Part shown: piece by piece, positions 26,066 through 35,000 of the stretch
How the letters are laid out: each line of letters opens with the position of its first letter
How positions within the stretch are numbered: the first letter of the stretch is position 1
Source: an uncultured Rhodospirillales bacterium
Lineage (GTDB): Bacteria; Pseudomonadota; Alphaproteobacteria; ATCC43930; CGMCC-115725
DNA length: 64,000 nucleotides
Assembly (NCBI GenBank): GCA_903822185.1
Contig: CAIJOA010000011.1
Coordinates: 372,001-436,000, forward strand
Direction: 5' to 3'
Program-made: the position numbers and the translations under genes
The notes under the pieces: generated by a model
The model's input: the letters and a program-made list of their open reading frames with translations, nothing else
Database searches by the model: none
Told to the model about the DNA's origin: nothing

Positions 26066-26711
26066 GCACCAGCGACGGCCGTTCGGGATCGGCTTCGATC
26101 TTGTGACGCAACTGGCGCACATAGATACGCAGATACTGCACATCGGTCGCGCCGCCCCAGACCTCGCGCATAAGGTGCTGATGCGTCAGCACCTTCCCAG
26201 CGTGCATCACGAGAATGCGCAAGAGATCATATTCCTTGGGCGACAACTTCACCTCGACGCCCTTCACCAAGACATGACGGCGAACGAGATCGACCGTGAG
26301 TTCTCCGGTTTTGAAGATCGGTTCGGCGCCTTGTTGCTGCAGCCGGTGACGCAACGCCGCCCGCAGCCGTGCATTGAGTTCCTCCATGCCGACGGGCTTG
26401 GTGATGTAATCGTCGGCGCCCAGATCCAACGCCTCGACCTTGCCGCGCTCGTCGCTCCGGATCGACAGGACGAGGATCGGCGTCAGCGCCGCCTGTCGTA
26501 TGCGCTTGATGACCTCGCGCCCGTCGATATCAGGCAAGCCCAAATCCAATAACACGACGTCCGGCTTGGCGCGGCCGAACGCGGTCCAGCCTTCCTCGCC
26601 GGTCGCCGCATCGACCACCTCATAGCCTTCGGCACTGAGGCTGGTGCGCAGAAGGCGACGGATCGCCGGTTCGTCATCGACGACGAGGACTTTGATCTGG
26701 CCCTGGCTCAC
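26004..26711 (-). CDS. kdpE: KDP operon response regulator
   Basis: 235 residues from a GTG that overlaps the kdpD stop by four bases. An OmpR-type regulator: receiver domain with the phospho-acceptor Asp56 (VVLLDLGLPDIDG), acidic pair in LVVDDEP and conserved Lys in DDYITKPVGMEEL. A winged-helix DNA-binding domain follows (about 135-230, LSPKEYDLLRILVMHAGKVL, YLRIYVRQLRHKIE). It is phosphorylated by KdpD and activates kdpFABC. The 3' end runs 62 bases into the convergent FUSC-type gene. Confidence 0.97.
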   Translation of the reverse strand: MSQGQIKVLVVDDEPAIRRLLRTSLSAEGYEVVDAATGEEGWTAFGRAKPDVVLLDLGLPDIDGREVIKRIRQAALTPILVLSIRSDERGKVEALDLGADDYITKPVGMEELNARLRAALRHRLQQQGAEPIFKTGELTVDLVRRHVLVKGVEVKLSPKEYDLLRILVMHAGKVLTHQHLMREVWGGATDVQYLRIYVRQLRHKIEADPERPSLVLTEPGVGYRLMLETEPGSLP

Positions 26712-29407
26712 GGCAGCGCTCCTTGTTGCGGCAACACCGGAAAAGCGATTACGAAGTCCGCGCCGCTGCGGTCGGTACGATTGCGCGCCACGATATTGCC
26801 GCCCATCGAGGCGACAAAGCCGCGGCAAATCGCGAGACCCAGCCCCGTTCCCGGCCGCCGCCGGTCGGCATCGAGCACGCGATGAAACTTATCGAACACG
26901 CGTTCGATCTGATCGTGCGGGATGCCCGTCCCTTCATCGCGGATATGGATTTCGACCATTGCGTCTTTCTGTTGGGCCCTGATCTCGATTTCCGAGCCTG
27001 CCGGTGCATATTTCGCCGCGTTATCCAGAAGATTGAACAATACCTGTTCGAACAGCACGAAATCGAGCCGCAACATCGGCAAATCAGGATCGAGCGCGAC
27101 CTTCACCGGATGATGCACCAAGACCTTGCCGGCGCGCTTTAGAACCGTGCCGACGACCTCGCTGACGTCGATCATCTCCTGCTTGGCAGCGATGGCGCCG
27201 GATTCGAGCTTGGTCATGTCGAGAAGATTGCCGACAAAGCGGTTGAGCCGTTCCGCCTCTTCGAGGATCGTCGTCGCGAGTTCGGTGCGCTGCGGCTCGG
27301 TATAACGGTCGCCGACGCTTTTGAGACTCGAGGCTGCGCCGATGATCGAGGCGAGCGGCGTACCGAGATCGTGCGAGATGGATGTCAGCAATGCGGCGCG
27401 CAACCGTTCGCCCTCGGCCTGAAGCTTCGCGATATCGAGATCATCCTGAAGATGAATCCGGTCGATCGCCAGTGCCGCCAGGTCCATCAGCGCGTCGAGC
27501 AAGCGCCGTCCATCCGGCGACAACAAGATGCCCGGCGCATCGCGATCGAGCCCGATGACGCCGACCGCACCGCTTCCGGTACGTAAAGGCAGGAACAAGC
27601 GTTTTGCGCCTGGGAGCGCATCGGAATGACGACCCGCCGCGCGGTTATGCGCCCAACACCATTTCGCTGCGGCAATGTCGCTGCCGTCGAGTTCATCCTC
27701 AGGCGGATAGCCGGCTTTCACCGCGAGTCCGTTTGGTTCGGGCATCAGAATGACGACGCGCAGTTTGAGCATCGAAGCGATTTGATAGGCCGCCGCCCAA
27801 AGAAGATCGTCGAGCGCCGCGATGCCGGCGAGCTTGCGGCTGAAGCCGAGAAGTTCCTCGGTCACGCGCGCGCGTGTGCTGGCGGAAACGGCTTGCGCGC
27901 GTGTGCCCGCCGCGAGGTTGCTGGCGATCACCGCAACGACAAGAAACGTGATCAGAGCGACAATATTTTCCGGCGCCGTGATCGTGAAATTATACAGCGG
28001 CGGCAGGAAGAAGAAGTTATAGGCCAGCACGCTGAGGATGCAGGCGAACAGCGACGGCATCAACCCGAAGCGCGCGGCCACCACGAGCACCGCGGTCAAA
28101 AATACCAACGCGATGTTCAGCACATTGAGCAACTGATTCAACGTGACGCCGATCGCCAAGGCGACCGCACAGATCGCGAAAGTAAAGACGTAAGGCATCG
28201 TCGCGAAGGTAGTTTTCGGCGCCGCTGTCGCGATCACTTTGGCGTCGCTCGGTTCGGCCGCCTCGCCGGCAATGACATGGACGCTGATATTGCCGGCGCG
28301 GCGCACGAGATCATGCACGACCGAGCCGTGCATCATCTCGAACCAGCGCGAGCGTTCGGACTTGCCGATGACGATATGGGTGATGTTGTTCGCCTCGGCA
28401 TAGGACGCGACATCTTCGGCAATACCGCGCCCGGGAATGGTCAGGGTCTGACCGCCGAGCCGTTCGGCAAAACGCAGCGTGTCGGCGATACGATCCCGCG
28501 CCGCCTCACCCAGCCGCTGATAGCGGGAGGTCTCGACATAGACCGCCGTCCAAGGCGCATGCAGCCGGTCGGCCAGTCGCCGTGCATAGCGCACCAGTCC
28601 CATCGCTGTCGGGTGTTCGCTGATGCAGACCAACACCCGCTCGCCCGCGGCCCAGGGACCGCTGATGGCATGGGCGCGCATATAAGTCAGCATCTGCTCA
28701 TCGACGCGCTGCGCCGTACGCCGCAACGCGAGTTCGCGCAGCGCTGTCAGGTTGCCGGGCTGGAAATAATTGCGTAACGCGCGGTCAGCCTCGGCCGGGA
28801 CATAGACCTTGCCTTCGCGCAGCCGCTCGATCAGGTCGTCGGGCGAAATATCGACGATCTCGATATCGTCGGCACGGTCAAGGATGCCGTCGGGGACCGT
28901 CTCACGAATGCGGATATGCGTGATCTGAGCGACCACGTCGTTGAGGCTTTCGACATGCTGGATATTGATCGTCGTATAGACATCGATGCCCGCTGCGAGC
29001 AGTTCTTCGACATCGAGATAACGCTTCGGGTGACGGCTGCCGGTGACGTTGGTATGGGCGAGTTCATCGACCAGCACGAGCTTCGGACGGCGCGCCAGGA
29101 TCGCGTCGATATCCATCTCGTCGAGGAGATGATCCTTATAGTCGATCTGACGGCGCGGCAGGATATCGAGCCCATTCAGCAGGGCCATCGTCTCCGCACG
29201 GCCATGCGTCTCCACGACACCGACGACGACGTCGATCCCTTCGTGCCGCGCCGATTGCGCGGCGTTAAGCATTTTGTAGGTCTTGCCGACTCCCGGCGCG
29301 GCGCCGAGAAATATCTTCAGCCGCCCATGACCTTCCCGCCCCGCTTGGCGAAGAAGGGCATCGGGTGACGGACGTTGATCGCGATCGGCGCTATCGATAC
29401 TGGCCAT
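26708..29407 (-). CDS. kdpD: potassium/turgor sensor histidine kinase
   Basis: 899 residues, full length: N-terminal KdpD domain with Walker A GAAPGVGKT at 35-43, a universal-stress-type domain (about 250-370), four closely spaced helices (near 405-500), a GAF region, then HisKA and HATPase. The phospho-acceptor is His679 in SISHDLGTPLASIIGAA. The Gly after SHDL, where E. coli has Arg, is found in some other kinases. Other boxes are NLLDNAAKYAP and GTGLGLAI. It senses low K+ and ionic or turgor stress and phosphorylates KdpE. Ten bases separate it from kdpC. Confidence 0.97.
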   Translation of the reverse strand: MASIDSADRDQRPSPDALLRQAGREGHGRLKIFLGAAPGVGKTYKMLNAAQSARHEGIDVVVGVVETHGRAETMALLNGLDILPRRQIDYKDHLLDEMDIDAILARRPKLVLVDELAHTNVTGSRHPKRYLDVEELLAAGIDVYTTINIQHVESLNDVVAQITHIRIRETVPDGILDRADDIEIVDISPDDLIERLREGKVYVPAEADRALRNYFQPGNLTALRELALRRTAQRVDEQMLTYMRAHAISGPWAAGERVLVCISEHPTAMGLVRYARRLADRLHAPWTAVYVETSRYQRLGEAARDRIADTLRFAERLGGQTLTIPGRGIAEDVASYAEANNITHIVIGKSERSRWFEMMHGSVVHDLVRRAGNISVHVIAGEAAEPSDAKVIATAAPKTTFATMPYVFTFAICAVALAIGVTLNQLLNVLNIALVFLTAVLVVAARFGLMPSLFACILSVLAYNFFFLPPLYNFTITAPENIVALITFLVVAVIASNLAAGTRAQAVSASTRARVTEELLGFSRKLAGIAALDDLLWAAAYQIASMLKLRVVILMPEPNGLAVKAGYPPEDELDGSDIAAAKWCWAHNRAAGRHSDALPGAKRLFLPLRTGSGAVGVIGLDRDAPGILLSPDGRRLLDALMDLAALAIDRIHLQDDLDIAKLQAEGERLRAALLTSISHDLGTPLASIIGAASSLKSVGDRYTEPQRTELATTILEEAERLNRFVGNLLDMTKLESGAIAAKQEMIDVSEVVGTVLKRAGKVLVHHPVKVALDPDLPMLRLDFVLFEQVLFNLLDNAAKYAPAGSEIEIRAQQKDAMVEIHIRDEGTGIPHDQIERVFDKFHRVLDADRRRPGTGLGLAICRGFVASMGGNIVARNRTDRSGADFVIAFPVLPQQGALP

Positions 29408-29417
29408 CGCCCTCCTG

Positions 29418-30017
29418 TCAGGGCGCGAGCGCGTCGAGCGCCAAATTGAGCTTCAGCACATTAACCCGCGGCTCGCCCAGAATACCAAGCGTTCGGGTTT
29501 CTGTGTAGTCGTCAACCAGTGCCTGTACCTTCACCGCCGGCAGGTTCCGCGCCTGAGCCACCCGCGCGACCTGAAACGCCGCGCCGGCGGGGGTTATATC
29601 CGGATCGAGCCCGCTGGCGGACGTCGTCACCAGATCGACCGGCACCTTGGCCGCGCCGCCCGCCGCCAGCGTTTCCGAATCGGTTTTGACTCGGTCGATC
29701 AGAGCCTGGCTGGTCGGGCCGAGATTGGAGCCGGCCGAGTTATCGGCGGCGTAAGGCGTCGCAACACTTTTGGTCGAATCAGCCGGATCGGCTTCGGTCG
29801 TCACCGACGGACGGCCACGAAAATATTTTTCGCTGGTGAAGTTCTGGCCGATCATGTCGGCCCCGATCACCTGGCCGTCTTTCTCGATCAAGCTGCCATT
29901 GGCCTGATGCGGAAAGATGAGTTGGGAAAGACCGGTCATGCCCAGCGGATAGGCGAAGCCGGTGATCGCGGTCATGACGACGATCATCGCAATGGCGGGA
30001 CGGATTTCACGCAACAT
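29418..30017 (-). CDS. kdpC: K+-transporting ATPase subunit KdpC
   Basis: 199 residues with one N-terminal transmembrane helix ([20 protein letters not shown]) and a periplasmic domain. The conserved segment [12 protein letters not shown], the family SGSNLGP-type motif (here [12 protein letters not shown]) and [16 protein letters not shown] are present. It is the small stabilising subunit between KdpA and KdpB. It lies 12 bases after kdpB and precedes kdpD. Confidence 0.97.
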
Positions 30018-30029
30018 GATGGCGCTCCT

Positions 30030-32105
30030 TTACGCGAGGCCGATAAAGGTGACGAGAACATCGATAATCTTGATGCCGACGAACGGCGCGACGAGACCAC
30101 CGAGGCCATAGATCAAGAGGTTACGGCGCAGGATGCTGGCCGCTCCCGCCGGACGATAGGTGACGCCTTTGAGGCTCAGCGGGATCAGCGCGATGATGAT
30201 CAACGCATTGAAGATGATCGCCGAGAGGATCGCACTTTCCGGCGTCTTCAGTCCCATGATATTGAGCGCGCCGAGCTGCGGATAGAAAGCTATGAACATC
30301 GCTGGGATGATCGCGAAATATTTCGCGACATCGTTGGCGATCGAAAAAGTCGTCAGCGCGCCGCGCGTCATCAGCAGTTGTTTGCCGATGGCGACGATTT
30401 CGATCAGCTTAGTCGGGTCGCTGTCGAGATCGACCATATTGCCGGCCTCGCGCGCCGCCATTGTCCCGGTGTTCATCGCCACCCCGACATCGGCCTGAGC
30501 GAGCGCCGGCGCGTCGTTGGTGCCGTCGCCGCACATCGCCACCAGCTTGCCCTTGCCCTGCTCGGCACGGATGAGAGCCAGTTTGTCCTCAGGCGTCGCC
30601 TGGGCGAGGAAGTCATCAACACCTGCCTCGGCCGCAATCGCCGCGGCGGTCAGCGGATTGTCGCCGGTAATCATCACTGTGCGGATACCCATCTGCCGTA
30701 ATTCGTTGAAACGGTCGCGGATGCCGCCTTTGACGATGTCCTTGAGATAGATGACCCCGAGGATGCGCCCGTCCTTGGCGACGGCCAGCGGCGTGCCACC
30801 CGACTTGGCGATGGTCTCAACGATCTTAGCCAGATCGGCCGGCGGTGCCGCCTTACGATCCACATAGGCCAGCACCGCATCGACGGCGCCTTTGCGGATC
30901 GCATGACCACCGGCATCGACGCCCGACATCCGCGTCTGTGCGGTAAAAGGGATGAACTGGGCATCCGCCCCCATCGCAGCGGCGCTCCGGCCATATTTCT
31001 CCGTAGCAAGCAACACGATGGAGCGGCCTTCGGGCGTTTCATCGCTAAGCGATGAAAGCTGTGCAGCCTCGGCGAGTTCCTGGATATCGACACCGGCGAG
31101 CGGGATGAATTCCGCCGCCTGACGATTGCCGAGCGTGATCGTACCAGTCTTGTCGAGCAGCAGCGTATCAACATCGCCCGCCGCCTCGACCGCACGGCCC
31201 GACATCGCCAACACGTTGAAACGCACCAACCGGTCCATGCCGGCAATGCCGATTGCCGAGAGCAAGGCGCCGATCGTGGTCGGGATCAGCGTCACGAACA
31301 AGGCGATCAGCATCACCACCGACACGGTTCCACCGGCATAGAGCGCGAAACTGGGGATCGTCACGGTCGCGAAAACGAAGATCAGCGTCATCCCCGCGAG
31401 AAGGATGTTCAGCGCGATCTCGTTCGGCGTCTTCTGCCGTACCGCGCCTTCGACCAGCGAGATCATGCGATCGAGAAAGGTCGAGCCTTGCGCTGCGGTG
31501 ATACGGATCTTGAGCCAATCAGAGGTGACGCGCGTGCCGCCGGTGACGGCAGACCGGTCGCCGCCGCTTTCGCGAATGACCGGCGCTGATTCTCCGGTGA
31601 TCGCAGATTCATCGACCGAGGCAACGCCTTCGATTACATCGCCATCACTTGGGATGAGATCGCCGGCATCGACCAGAACGATGTCGCCTTTCTTAAGCGA
31701 AGCCGCCGCAACGGTTTCGAATTCGCGTGTCGCAACCGTGGCGATGCGCTTGGCCGAGGTTTCGGTACGCATCCGCCGTAATGTGTCGGCCTGCGCTTTG
31801 CCGCGGCCTTCGGCAACGGCCTCGGCGAAATTGGCAAACAACACCGTGAACCACAGCCAGGCCGCGATCTGCCCCGAGAACAGAGCATTGGAACCAGCAA
31901 ACAAATCGCGCAGGAAGAAGACCGTGGTCAAAGCCGAGACGATCTCGACCACGAACATGACGGGGTTCTTCACCAGCGTCCGCGGATTCAGCTTACGAAA
32001 GGAGGCACCGATCGCCGGTCCCAGTAGCGACGGATCGAGCATGGTTTGCGATGGGCGTTTCTGCAGCGACCGGCTGGGCGTGGCAACGGATGTGTCGAAG
32101 CTCAT
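30030..32105 (-). CDS. kdpB: K+-transporting P-type ATPase subunit KdpB
   Basis: 691 residues from the ATG at 32105, which has GAGGA seven bases upstream; another ATG two codons earlier is too close to that site. The phosphorylated Asp318 is in [14 protein letters not shown], the actuator loop is TGES at 170-173, and the hinge motif is [16 protein letters not shown]. It energises high-affinity K+ uptake through KdpA. It lies between kdpA (24 bases) and kdpC. Confidence 0.98.
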
Positions 32106-32129
32106 GATCATGTCCTCGGAGGCAAAAGC

Positions 32130-33866
32130 TCAGGGCGCCGGGTAAAGCGTGCCGGCATTCATCGCGACATGCTCGACCACCGGCCCCAGCGCGACGGCGG
32201 GGAAATAGGTCAGGCCGCCGATGATCAGGATGACTCCGACCAAGAGGCCGACGAAAAGCGGGCCATGGGTCGGGAACGTGCCGGCCGACGGCGCGACCAT
32301 CTTCTTCGCCGCGAGCGAACCCGCAATGGCGAGAACCGGAACGACAAAGATGAAGCGGCCGATCAGCATCCCGGCGGCGAGCGTCGTGTTATAAAAGAAC
32401 GTATTCGCCGAGATGCCTGCGAAGGCGCTGCCGTTGTTGCCCGCCGCCGAGGTGAAGGCATAAAGAATTTCGGAAAAGCCGTGCGGCCCGGTATTCGCCG
32501 GCCCCGCCAAGCCAGCCGGCACGACCGTGGCGATGGCACTGAAGCCGAGGATCGCCAGCGGCAACGCCAGAAGAGCGAGAATACTCATCTTGACCTCCTT
32601 CGCTTCGAGCTTCTTGCCCAGATATTCCGGCGTGCGACCGACCATCAGCCCGGCGATGAACATCGTCACGATGGCAAAGGCGAGCATGCCGTAGAGGCCC
32701 GAACCGACGCCGCCGAAGATGACTTCGCCAAGCTGGATATTGACCATCGGCACCAGCCCGCCCAGCGGCGTAAAGCTGTCATGCATCGCATTGACCGCAC
32801 CGCAGGACGCGTCCGTGGTTACGGTGGCGAACAAAGCCGAATTGGCGATGCCGAAGCGAACTTCTTTGCCTTCCATGTTGCCGCCGGCTTGCATCGGCCC
32901 GGCGAGTTGATCGACCGGCATCGCGGCAAAGGCCGGATTGCCGGCGCTTTCGGCCCAATAGGCCGTAGCGACGCCCATGAGGAACAGCACGCCCATCGCG
33001 GCAAACAATGCCCAACCCTGGCGTTCGTCCTTCACCATGCGACCCAGCAAGTTGGTAAGCCCCGCGCCGATGACGAAGATCAGCACCATCTGCACGAAGT
33101 TCGTCAGCGCCGTCGGATTTTCGTAAGGGTGCGCGGAATTGGCGTTGAAGAAGCCGCCGCCGTTCGTACCCAGCATCTTGATCGCTTCCTGCGATGCGAC
33201 TGGACCTTGCCCGATCACCTGCTTGGCGCCTTCGAGCGTCGTCGCTTCGACATAGGCGCCGAGATTTTGCGGCACGCCTTGCCAGACAAAGAAAAGACAA
33301 ACGGCGATCGAGATCGGCAGCAGCACGTAAAGCGTGGCGCGGGTCATATCGACCCAGAAATTACCGACGGATTTCGTCTCGCGCCCGACAAAACCGCGAA
33401 TGACTGCAACCGCCAGTGCGATGCCCGTGGCCGCCGAAACGAAATTATGCACCGTGAGCCCGGCCATCTGGGTCAGGTAGCTCATCGTCGTTTCGGGAAC
33501 GTAGGATTGCCAGTTGGTATTGGTGACGAAGCTGATCGAGGTGTTGAAGGCGAGGCTTTGCTCGACATTGCCCTGCCCCGCCGGATTGAACGGCAAAACC
33601 GCTTGCAGCCGTTGCAGCGCATAAAGCGACACAAACCCCGCGACGCTGAAGAAGAGCATCGAGACGGCATAGGTAAGCCAGCCCTGCTCTTTCGTCTCAT
33701 CGACACCGCAGCACCAATAGATCGCCCGTTCGACCGGACGCAGTACCGGATGCAGGATGGTACGACCGCCGTCGAAGACGCGATGGAGATAACCGCCCAT
33801 CGGTCGCGTGACAGCGATGATTACCAAAGAGAAAAACGCGATCTGAACCCAACCGTTGAAGGTCAT
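32130..33866 (-). CDS. kdpA: K+-transporting ATPase channel subunit KdpA
   Basis: 578 residues with about ten helices in four selectivity-filter repeats, related to the SKT potassium transporter superfamily. Recognisable pieces are [20 protein letters not shown] (first filter region), [20 protein letters not shown] (second), and [15 protein letters not shown] near the C-terminus. It selects and binds K+ in the KdpFABC complex. It lies 10 bases after kdpF. Confidence 0.98.
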
Positions 33867-33876
33867 CGGATTGCTC

Positions 33877-33966
33877 CTAGAACCGTTCGGGTTTGATCAG
33901 GGCATAAATCAGATAGCCCGTGATGATCACGGCCACGATCCCGCCCAAGACGTCATCGAAAATCAT
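33877..33966 (-). CDS. kdpF: K+-transporting ATPase small subunit KdpF
   Basis: A 29-residue single-helix protein: [20 protein letters not shown] followed by ALIKPERF. The helix and the ending [12 protein letters not shown] match the KdpF pattern (helix, then hydrophobic-x-x-PE-x-F). It has GAGGAA before its ATG. KdpF stabilises the KdpABC complex in the lipid bilayer. It lies directly between the 27-residue ORF and kdpA. Confidence 0.93.
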
Positions 33967-33976
33967 ATCCCGTTCC

Positions 33977-34060
33977 TCAAAGGCGATCGCAGGCGATAGC
34001 GAAAGCCACCGTAAGGGCGAAGGCGCCCAAACCCGCTACGGTGAAAATAAAATCGAGCAT
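33977..34060 (-). CDS. 27-residue single-helix ORF leading the kdp operon
   Basis: ATG at 34060 with GGGG six bases upstream; stop 10 bases before the kdpF ATG. The peptide is one hydrophobic helix with a short charged end: LDFIFTVAGLGAFALTVAF then AIACDRL. I recall similarly sized peptides ending in a Cys-acidic/basic-Leu motif ahead of kdpF in other proteobacteria and in actinobacteria, usually left unannotated. Spacing, frame and composition support translation. It could be an extra Kdp subunit or a leader peptide; no function is established by the sequence. Confidence 0.7.
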   Translation of the reverse strand: MLDFIFTVAGLGAFALTVAFAIACDRL

Positions 34061-34099
34061 CACGCGCCCCGTCCTTGTTCAGACGAGAAGATCGTTGGC

Positions 34100-34117
34100 C
34101 TCGCATATAAAAACGAG
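34100..34117. promoter_or_regulatory. A/T-rich site with CTCG/CGAG ends upstream of kdp
   Basis: CTCG-CATATAAAAA-CGAG lies 40 bases upstream of the first kdp ORF. It is the most A/T-rich stretch of the intergenic region. On the kdp strand it reads TTTTTATATG. E. coli KdpE binds a T-rich site upstream of kdpF, so this is a candidate KdpE site or -10 region; the match is by composition only. Confidence 0.35.
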
Positions 34118-34135
34118 ACGGAACGCAGGAGGCGG

Positions 34136-34154
34136 ATATAGGATTTCCGTATAT
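34136..34154. promoter_or_regulatory. imperfect palindrome between kdp and aldo/keto reductase
   Basis: ATATA and TATAT half-sites flank a GGATTTCCG centre, 25 bases upstream of the aldo/keto reductase ATG and on the far side of the kdp start region. It has the look of an operator or of overlapping divergent -10 boxes. No -35 element is convincing on either strand. Confidence 0.3.
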
Positions 34155-34178
34155 GGTCCCCGCGTCTCAGGAGAACCG

Positions 34179-35000
34179 ATGAAAACCGTAAGCCTTCCCG
34201 ACGGCACGACGATCCCGATACTTGGTCTTGGCACCTGGCAAATGGGTGAACGCGCGCAAAGCGCGAAGGCGGAGATCGCCGCCTTGAAGCTGGGGCTCGA
34301 TCTCGGCCTGTCGCTGATCGACACCGCGGAAATGTATGCGAGCGGGCGCAGCGAGGAGATCGTCCGCGAGGCGATGGGCGGGCGCCGCGACGACGTCTTT
34401 CTCGTCAGCAAAGTCCTACCGCAAAATGCGAGCCGCAAAGGGACCATCGCCGCCTGCGAGGCGAGCCTCAAACGGCTGGGCACCGACCGGCTCGACCTTT
34501 ATTTACTGCACTGGCGAGGCAGCGTGCCGATCAGCGAAACCGTCGCTGCGTTCGAGACGCTGAGGAGCGCGGGCAAGATTCGATACTGGGGCGTCAGCAA
34601 TTTCGATCGTGACGATATGGAAGAGATCGAACATTCCGCCGTCGCGACCAATCAGTTGCTCTACAATCTCTCACGACGCGGCATCGAAAAAGATCTGCTG
34701 CCCTGGTCGCAATCCCATCGTATTCCCATCATGGCCTATTCGCCCATCGAGCAGGGCCGCATCCTGGGCAATCCCACGCTTATCCAACTGGCGAAAGCAC
34801 GCGGCTGTAGCGCGGCGCAGATCGCGCTCGCCTGGGTGTTGAGCCGCGACGGCGTTATGACGATTCCGAAAGCCAGCAATGCAGAACATGTACGCGAGAA
34901 TGTCGCGGCGCTGGAAATCGCGCTGAACGCCGCGGAAATGGCCGCGCTCGATCGAGCGTTTCCGCCGCCGTCGCGGTCGATTCCGCTGGAAACGCTGTAA
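34179..35000 (+). CDS. aldo/keto reductase
   Basis: 273 residues from the ATG at 34179 with AGGAG five bases upstream. A (beta/alpha)8 NAD(P)H-dependent oxidoreductase. The catalytic tetrad is visible: Asp48 and Tyr53 (LIDTAEMYASG), Lys78 (FLVSKVLP), His111 (YLLHW). The C-terminus holds the cofactor segment TIPKASNAEHVRENVAAL. It resembles the DkgA/YeaE-like branch, reducing small aldehydes or ketones; substrate unknown. It is divergent from kdp and followed by cfa. Confidence 0.92.
   Translation: MKTVSLPDGTTIPILGLGTWQMGERAQSAKAEIAALKLGLDLGLSLIDTAEMYASGRSEEIVREAMGGRRDDVFLVSKVLPQNASRKGTIAACEASLKRLGTDRLDLYLLHWRGSVPISETVAAFETLRSAGKIRYWGVSNFDRDDMEEIEHSAVATNQLLYNLSRRGIEKDLLPWSQSHRIPIMAYSPIEQGRILGNPTLIQLAKARGCSAAQIALAWVLSRDGVMTIPKASNAEHVRENVAALEIALNAAEMAALDRAFPPPSRSIPLETL

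What the first reader, a model, noticed from the sequence alone, without database searches (positions are those of the whole stretch)
33977..34060. Unnamed 27-residue membrane peptide gene ahead of kdpF
An ATG with a good ribosome site encodes one hydrophobic helix ending ACDRL, spaced 10 bases from kdpF and in the same direction. KdpF itself is only 29 residues, so the operon would begin with two tiny single-helix genes. I recall similar peptides before kdpF in other phyla, but know of no function. It could be a further Kdp subunit or a regulatory leader.
Basis: partly seen in the sequence, partly recalled or inferred. Interest (0 to 1): 0.6.

Follow-up and report, generated by a model that had tools for sequence, protein, structure and literature searches.

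The report
Unnamed fifth gene of Kdp pump
Just ahead of the known genes for the bacterial emergency potassium pump Kdp lies a tiny, unnamed gene for a 27-residue membrane helix; it is conserved across most bacterial phyla sampled but missing from E. coli, the species in which the pump's structure was solved, and it co-varies with one arginine of the pump, so it is probably an overlooked fifth subunit.

Summary
On the minus strand, 34060..33977 encodes MLDFIFTVAGLGAFALTVAFAIACDRL, 10 bp before kdpF of a kdpFABC-DE operon. It is a real, widespread gene. A profile finds it just upstream of kdpA in 166 of 201 kdpA loci. It is present in 78 of 80 named genomes (Pseudomonadota, Bacillota, Acidobacteriota, Chloroflexota, Myxococcota, Actinomycetota and others). 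In frame dN/dS is 0.13-0.39, against 0.93-2.15 in the other frames. Of 131 genomes without KdpA only one has a hit, and there the contig ends just after kdpF. No Pfam or NCBIfam model covers it and it is not a KdpF relative.

A leader role is unlikely: the gene can lie after kdpF and survives in operons that lack kdpF. The acidic residue at position 3 co-varies with KdpA Arg82 (E. coli numbering) and Tyr78, at the outer end of KdpA helix 2. Across 67 comparable control columns the Pagel likelihood ratio is at most 9.3, against 46 for Arg82 and 23 for Tyr78. In 33 loci read after the idea was formed it held in 30. E. coli lacks both the peptide and the arginine.

Best reading: a fifth Kdp subunit packed on KdpA through an Asp3-Arg82 contact. 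Complex membership is inferred, not shown.

The parts
33977..34060 (-). small gene: 27-aa single-helix membrane protein MLDFIFTVAGLGAFALTVAFAIACDRL
   Evidence: conserved frame; only hit in the genome
34072..34076 (-). ribosome-site-like AAGGA before the small gene
   Evidence: read directly
33877..33966 (-). kdpF (29 aa); its AGG ribosome site overlaps the TGA stop of the small gene
   Evidence: PF09604 39.6 bits, TIGR02115 34.6 bits; sequence
32130..33866 (-). kdpA (578 aa)
   Evidence: PF03814 E 2.2e-246
33609..33611 (-). codon of KdpA Arg86 (= position 82 in E. coli, where it is Leu), proposed contact of peptide Asp3
   Evidence: codon CGG read
33621..33623 (-). codon of KdpA Tyr82 (= position 78 in E. 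coli, where it is Phe)
   Evidence: codon TAT read
30030..32111 (-). kdpB
   Evidence: ORF 693 aa with P-type ATPase motif DKTGT, (family from sequence knowledge)
29418..30017 (-). kdpC
   Evidence: ORF 199 aa in operon position
26708..29407 (-). kdpD sensor kinase
   Evidence: ORF 899 aa

Best explanation
The ORF is a protein-coding gene for a small single-helix membrane protein that is a fifth, unnamed subunit of the Kdp potassium pump. It is translated with KdpF and KdpA from one mRNA. It inserts with its acidic N-terminus outside and basic C-terminus inside, and packs along helix 2 (the first channel helix) of KdpA. Asp3 pairs there with KdpA Arg82 and Tyr78 (E. coli numbering), one helical turn apart, just before the loop to the first pore helix. 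It probably stabilises KdpA and the complex, and may tune the K+ entrance. Lineages such as E. coli lost the peptide, and with it the arginine. Shown: coding, conservation, exclusive link to kdp, co-variation. Inferred: topology, physical contact, stoichiometric membership, effect on stability or affinity.
For: Coding: dN/dS 0.13-0.39 in frame in six clades, 0.93-2.15 in the other two frames. Distribution: 166 of 201 kdpA loci with one hit outside, itself before a second kdp operon; 78 of 80 named loci in eight or more phyla. Exclusive link: of 69 KdpA genomes 46 have it; of 131 without KdpA only one, where the contig ends just after kdpF. One copy per kdp operon in genomes with two or three. 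Order swapped (kdpF-peptide-kdpA) in L096, L099, L115 by profile and L039, L178 by eye. Kept where kdpF is absent: L026-L029. Gene spacing -4 to +16 in most loci, often ATGA/GTGA overlaps. Charge: 140 distinct peptides hold 2 K/R and 138 D/E in residues 1-7, 229 K/R after residue 20. Co-variation: KdpA column 82 ranks first of 548 within peptide-bearing loci; Pagel LR 46.2 (Arg82) and 23.0 (Tyr78), 67 other columns at most 9.3; 30 of 33 out-of-sample loci agree. In the model, Arg82 is the last residue of KdpA helix 2, before the pore helix.
Against: No direct evidence of translation or of presence in a complex. Four acid-bearing peptides face a KdpA without Arg82, and four kdp loci without an acidic peptide keep it. 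Independent-pairs tests on supported branches are one-sided (5.4 concordant, 0.1 discordant of 8) but too few for significance (median p 0.06). No conserved helix face was found (permutation p 0.50). E. coli works without it, so it is not essential to the pump's chemistry.
Confidence: 0.74

Rival explanations
1. A transient assembly or insertion factor for KdpA (dedicated chaperone) that touches KdpA helix 2 but is not a lasting subunit.
For: Same facts as the subunit reading: exclusive link to kdp, co-variation with KdpA. KdpF itself is described only as stabilising the complex (PMC8385062, PMC12629597).
Against: The co-varying pair looks like a standing charged contact; a chaperone would be expected to be less tightly tied one copy to one operon.
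Confidence: 0.14
2. A regulator in trans, for example of the sensor kinase KdpD, in the way MgrB acts on PhoQ.
For: Small membrane peptides of this size often act on kinases; kdpDE follows in this operon.
Against: Co-varying positions sit in KdpA. The gene is adjacent to kdpF/kdpA in every operon type, including swapped orders. KdpD/E columns were not tested.
Confidence: 0.06
3. A cis-acting leader peptide or uORF that controls kdpF translation or transcription.
For: First ORF of the operon, close to kdpF; translational coupling is likely.
Against: Amino-acid sequence conserved across phyla rather than codons or RNA; can lie after kdpF; kept when kdpF is lost; no Rfam element; only one weak terminator-like match, as many as chance gives; residue co-variation with KdpA.
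Confidence: 0.04
4. A diverged duplicate of KdpF, hence nothing new.
For: Same size and position; both are single helices.
Against: No PF09604/TIGR02115 match; hhalign finds no alignment with KdpF, while the Bacillota versions align to the family at E 7.7e-10; KdpF coexists with it in 162 loci.
Confidence: 0.02

Closest known systems
KdpF (PF09604, TIGR02115), small stabilising subunit of KdpFABC
   Same: Same operon, same size class (25-30 aa), one transmembrane helix, adjacent to kdpA
   Different: No sequence similarity; motif M-x-D...FF...Y...C-D-R-L against KdpF's YLvyALirPErF; both are present together in most operons, and four operons have only the new peptide
Small single-helix subunits of membrane complexes such as CydX of cytochrome bd oxidase
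   Same: Tiny conserved gene in the operon of its complex, missed by annotation
   Different: No homology tested or claimed; partner here would be KdpA
Azospirillum PGAP entries WP_275451547.1 and WP_281280356.1, 'hypothetical protein' before kdpF
   Same: The same gene with a longer start
   Different: Never named or connected to the pump; most records leave the gene unannotated
Four-subunit KdpFABC of E. coli
   Same: Same pump; KdpA 54% identical to the modelled one
   Different: E. coli has neither the peptide nor Tyr78/Arg82 (Phe78/Leu82)

Membership tests
KdpF family (PF09604 / TIGR02115) | profile score above curated cut-off | tested here: not met
   no match for the window peptide; none of 62 family members matches the KdpF model
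KdpF family (PF09604 / TIGR02115) | sequence relationship by profile-profile comparison | tested here: not met
   hhalign aligns only one column
Kdp complex subunit | gene in the kdp operon and in step with kdpA across genomes | tested here: met
Kdp complex subunit | encodes a protein under purifying selection | tested here: met
Kdp complex subunit | co-evolves with another subunit at specific residues | tested here: met
   KdpA Arg82/Tyr78 with peptide position 3; independent-pairs test alone inconclusive
Kdp complex subunit | physically present in the purified complex | not testable with these tools
   needs biochemistry or cryo-EM from a peptide-bearing species
cis-acting leader peptide | position ahead of the regulated genes required | tested here: not met
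   order kdpF-peptide-kdpA in five loci
cis-acting leader peptide | attenuator or known cis-regulatory RNA | tested here: not met
   no Rfam match at gathering level; terminator-like sites as expected by chance

The most novel reading that the evidence does not exclude
The usual bacterial Kdp pump has five subunits, not four: an undescribed 27-residue helix bound to KdpA through an Asp-Arg contact at the outer end of the first channel helix, ancestral in bacteria and lost several times, including in the lineage of the only structural model, E. coli. Peptide and arginine are lost together.
Probability: 0.65. Interest if true: 0.85.

Novelty: new variant of a known kind. Interest (0 to 1): 0.76.

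Why it matters
KdpFABC is a textbook P-type ATPase and is described as a heterotetramer (PMC10654040, PMC12629597). All solved KdpA structures that the fold search found are KdpFABC complexes, which to my knowledge are E. coli protein. If most bacteria carry a fifth subunit, complexes reconstituted from cloned kdpFABC of other species are incomplete, and genome annotations miss one gene per kdp operon. The proposed Asp-Arg pair makes this directly testable with two point mutations.

Tried and rejected
KdpF paralogue: rejected. Leader or attenuator: disfavoured. Conserved helix face: helical moment not significant (p 0.50). NCBIfam KdpF model PRK14740 matched 2 of 62 members weakly (best E 0.0086); 30 members scanned one by one gave no match to it, and no member scanned on its own reached a curated cut-off. 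Structure prediction of natural read-through frames (peptide-linker-KdpA): good KdpA model, but the helix is equally confident without KdpA, so no evidence of docking. Literature: no paper found that names the gene; the S. meliloti small-proteome text does not mention kdp (supplements not readable). From memory only, and not confirmed by any search: a kdp locus of Alicyclobacillus acidocaldarius may have been deposited with an extra first gene called kdpZ; if that gene is this peptide, a name exists without a function.

Full report
Observation. From 34060 down to 33977 the strand reads ATG CTC GAT ... CGC CTT TGA, giving MLDFIFTVAGLGAFALTVAFAIACDRL. AAGGA precedes it by 11 nt. Ten bases after its stop comes the ATG of kdpF (33966..33877, PF09604 39.6 bits), then kdpA (33866..32130), kdpB, kdpC, kdpD and a KdpE-like response regulator frame. 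The operon thus begins with two single-helix genes.

Is it a gene? In the 26 relatives' kdpA loci first examined, nearly every one with enough upstream sequence has a 27-codon frame of the same kind at the same place. A profile from 15 seeds, run over all frames of both strands of 189 kdpA loci, gave 137 hits; 136 were in the 520 bp upstream of kdpA. The single outside hit precedes a second, divergent kdp operon (L015). With an extended set and model, 166 of 201 loci score, again with only that one hit outside. By eye the gene is also in several loci below threshold (for example L039, L178, L184, L211). Starts are ATG in 149 of 166, and 142 have a Shine-Dalgarno match of four or more. The distance to kdpF clusters at 10-11 bp or at a 4-bp ATGA/GTGA overlap. 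In six clades the in-frame dN/dS is 0.13-0.39, while the same bases in the other two frames give 0.93-2.15.

Distribution. In 80 named kdpA loci the gene is present in 78: 50 of 50 Pseudomonadota, 12 of 12 Bacillota, 6 of 6 Acidobacteriota, 4 of 4 Chloroflexota, 3 of 4 Myxococcota/delta, and single Coriobacteriia, Gemmatimonadota and Melainabacteria loci; it is missing in Omnitrophota and Corallococcus. The 80 were the best matches to a Deinococcus-led KdpA query, so they are not a random sample. Deinococcus radiodurans, Streptomyces, Nonomuraea, Arthrobacter and Rhodococcus have it. It was not found in E. coli, Listeria, Lactiplantibacillus, Halobacterium, Tsukamurella, Trichormus or an Acinetobacter record, nor in several unnamed families whose KdpF looks enteric- or pseudomonad-like. 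Across 200 whole genomes of the phylum, 69 have KdpA and 46 of these have the peptide. Of the 131 without KdpA only one has it, and there the contig ends just after kdpF. Two stray hits remain: a weak one inside a 611-aa frame (G196), and one real-looking solitary copy away from kdp (G048). Genomes with two or three kdp operons have one peptide per operon.

What it is not. No Pfam or NCBIfam family matches the window peptide, and no family member scanned on its own reaches a curated cut-off. It does not align with KdpF by profile comparison, while the more divergent Bacillota versions align with the family at E 7.7e-10. The best PDB hit by profile is insignificant (E 0.077). A leader role fits poorly. 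The gene can sit between kdpF and kdpA (L096, L099, L115; L039, L178 by eye), and in four operons kdpF is gone while a 35-40-residue version of the peptide remains (L026-L029). There is no Rfam element or convincing terminator.

How it probably works. Column statistics show D at position 3 in 91%, F14 in 87%, C24 in 74%, Y20 in 68% and R26 in 68%. The first seven residues of 140 distinct peptides hold 138 acidic and 2 basic residues, and the tail holds 229 basic ones. By the positive-inside rule the N-terminus is outside (inference). I compared KdpA of peptide-bearing and peptide-free operons. Among KdpA columns well conserved in the bearers, position 82 (E. coli numbering) separates the groups best and position 78, one helical turn away, is in the top five: Arg and Tyr in 144 of 149 bearers each, and usually Leu/Met/Val and Phe in the others. 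Bearers that break the rule mostly also lack the acidic residue 3: Nevskia MLTT with Leu, L030 MPLI with Val, L178 MIYF with Lys.

Test of the idea. I then fetched the N-terminal part of KdpA for further loci not used to form the idea. In 33 such loci the prediction (acidic peptide means Arg82; otherwise not) held in 30. The failures were L094, L106 and L076 (my count from the table). In all, 155 loci have acidic peptide plus Arg, 29 have neither, and 4 + 4 disagree. Two labels had been corrected by hand in favour of the rule (L027, L069, whose true starts carry D/E) and two against it (L023, L106). With the uncorrected automatic labels, restricted to peptide-bearing loci, Fisher p is 1e-13. 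Relatedness was handled with a KdpA tree built without these columns. Pagel's correlated-evolution likelihood ratio is 46.2 for Arg82 and 23.0 for Tyr78, against a median of 3.2 and a maximum of 9.3 over 67 other KdpA columns of similar variability. Independent pairs on well-supported branches are one-sided (5.4 to 0.1 of 8) but too few for significance. In the AlphaFold2 model Arg82 is the last residue of helix 2, directly before the loop to the first pore helix (the model matches E. coli KdpA with TM 0.94-0.95). Helix 2 leads out to the K+ entrance (SKT fold, established knowledge), so an N-out peptide would bring Asp3 to the same side. The filter entrance is known to depend on negative surface charge (PMC12629597). 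Whether the peptide affects affinity is speculation.

Limits. Structure prediction neither supports nor refutes docking: the helix is at pLDDT 95-97 with KdpA and without it. KdpB, KdpC, KdpD and KdpF columns were not tested. Translation and complex membership are unproven. Reviews and structures describe four subunits, and an operon study in Sinorhizobium fredii tested co-transcription only from kdpF onward. The C. crescentus study noted a roughly 100-nt structured leader before kdpF, without an ORF. The paper library holds open-licence papers only, so an older or subscription-only description cannot be excluded.

Verdict. The gene is real, conserved, unannotated in nearly all records seen, and tied to the Kdp pump. 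The best reading is a fifth subunit that contacts KdpA through Asp3-Arg82.

Noticed in passing
L144:2874-2979, L148:2874-2979, L143:2874-2976 and loci L064, L066, L110, L161, L167: In Bradyrhizobium-type kdp operons a third small hydrophobic ORF (33-34 aa, ending SKPIRKV or SLKG) lies between kdpF and kdpA and looks conserved; start codons are often GTG.
   Followed up: partly
L026, L027, L028, L029 and L015 (opposite strand): Second kdp operons in the same family lack kdpF and carry a 35-40 aa version of the peptide with a longer C-terminal tail, directly before kdpA.
   Followed up: partly
L200:5615-5725 minus strand (G048 contig C9): A solitary copy MIDIFYTAIATGLFIAACAYAWACAKI with no kdp gene beside it; remnant or independent use.
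   Followed up: partly
L074, L075: A 60-74 aa ORF between kdpF and kdpA in one group of genomes, with kdpF unusually far (about 210-280 bp) from kdpA.
   Followed up: no
L210 (Deinococcus sp. AJ005), just before kdpA: ORF MGILLGLLILLALFGVVAWALKLPENL between kdpF and kdpA, unlike the peptide and resembling a second KdpF.
   Followed up: no
L209 (Roseomonas gilardii plasmid pRo-1): In the PLSDB gene table neither kdpF nor the peptide is listed, although both frames are intact.
   Followed up: partly
window 34063-34180: The kdp operon is divergent from an aldo/keto-reductase-like ORF (start about 34180, +); the roughly 120 bp between them must hold both promoters, and no sigma-70 consensus site was found.
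   Followed up: no
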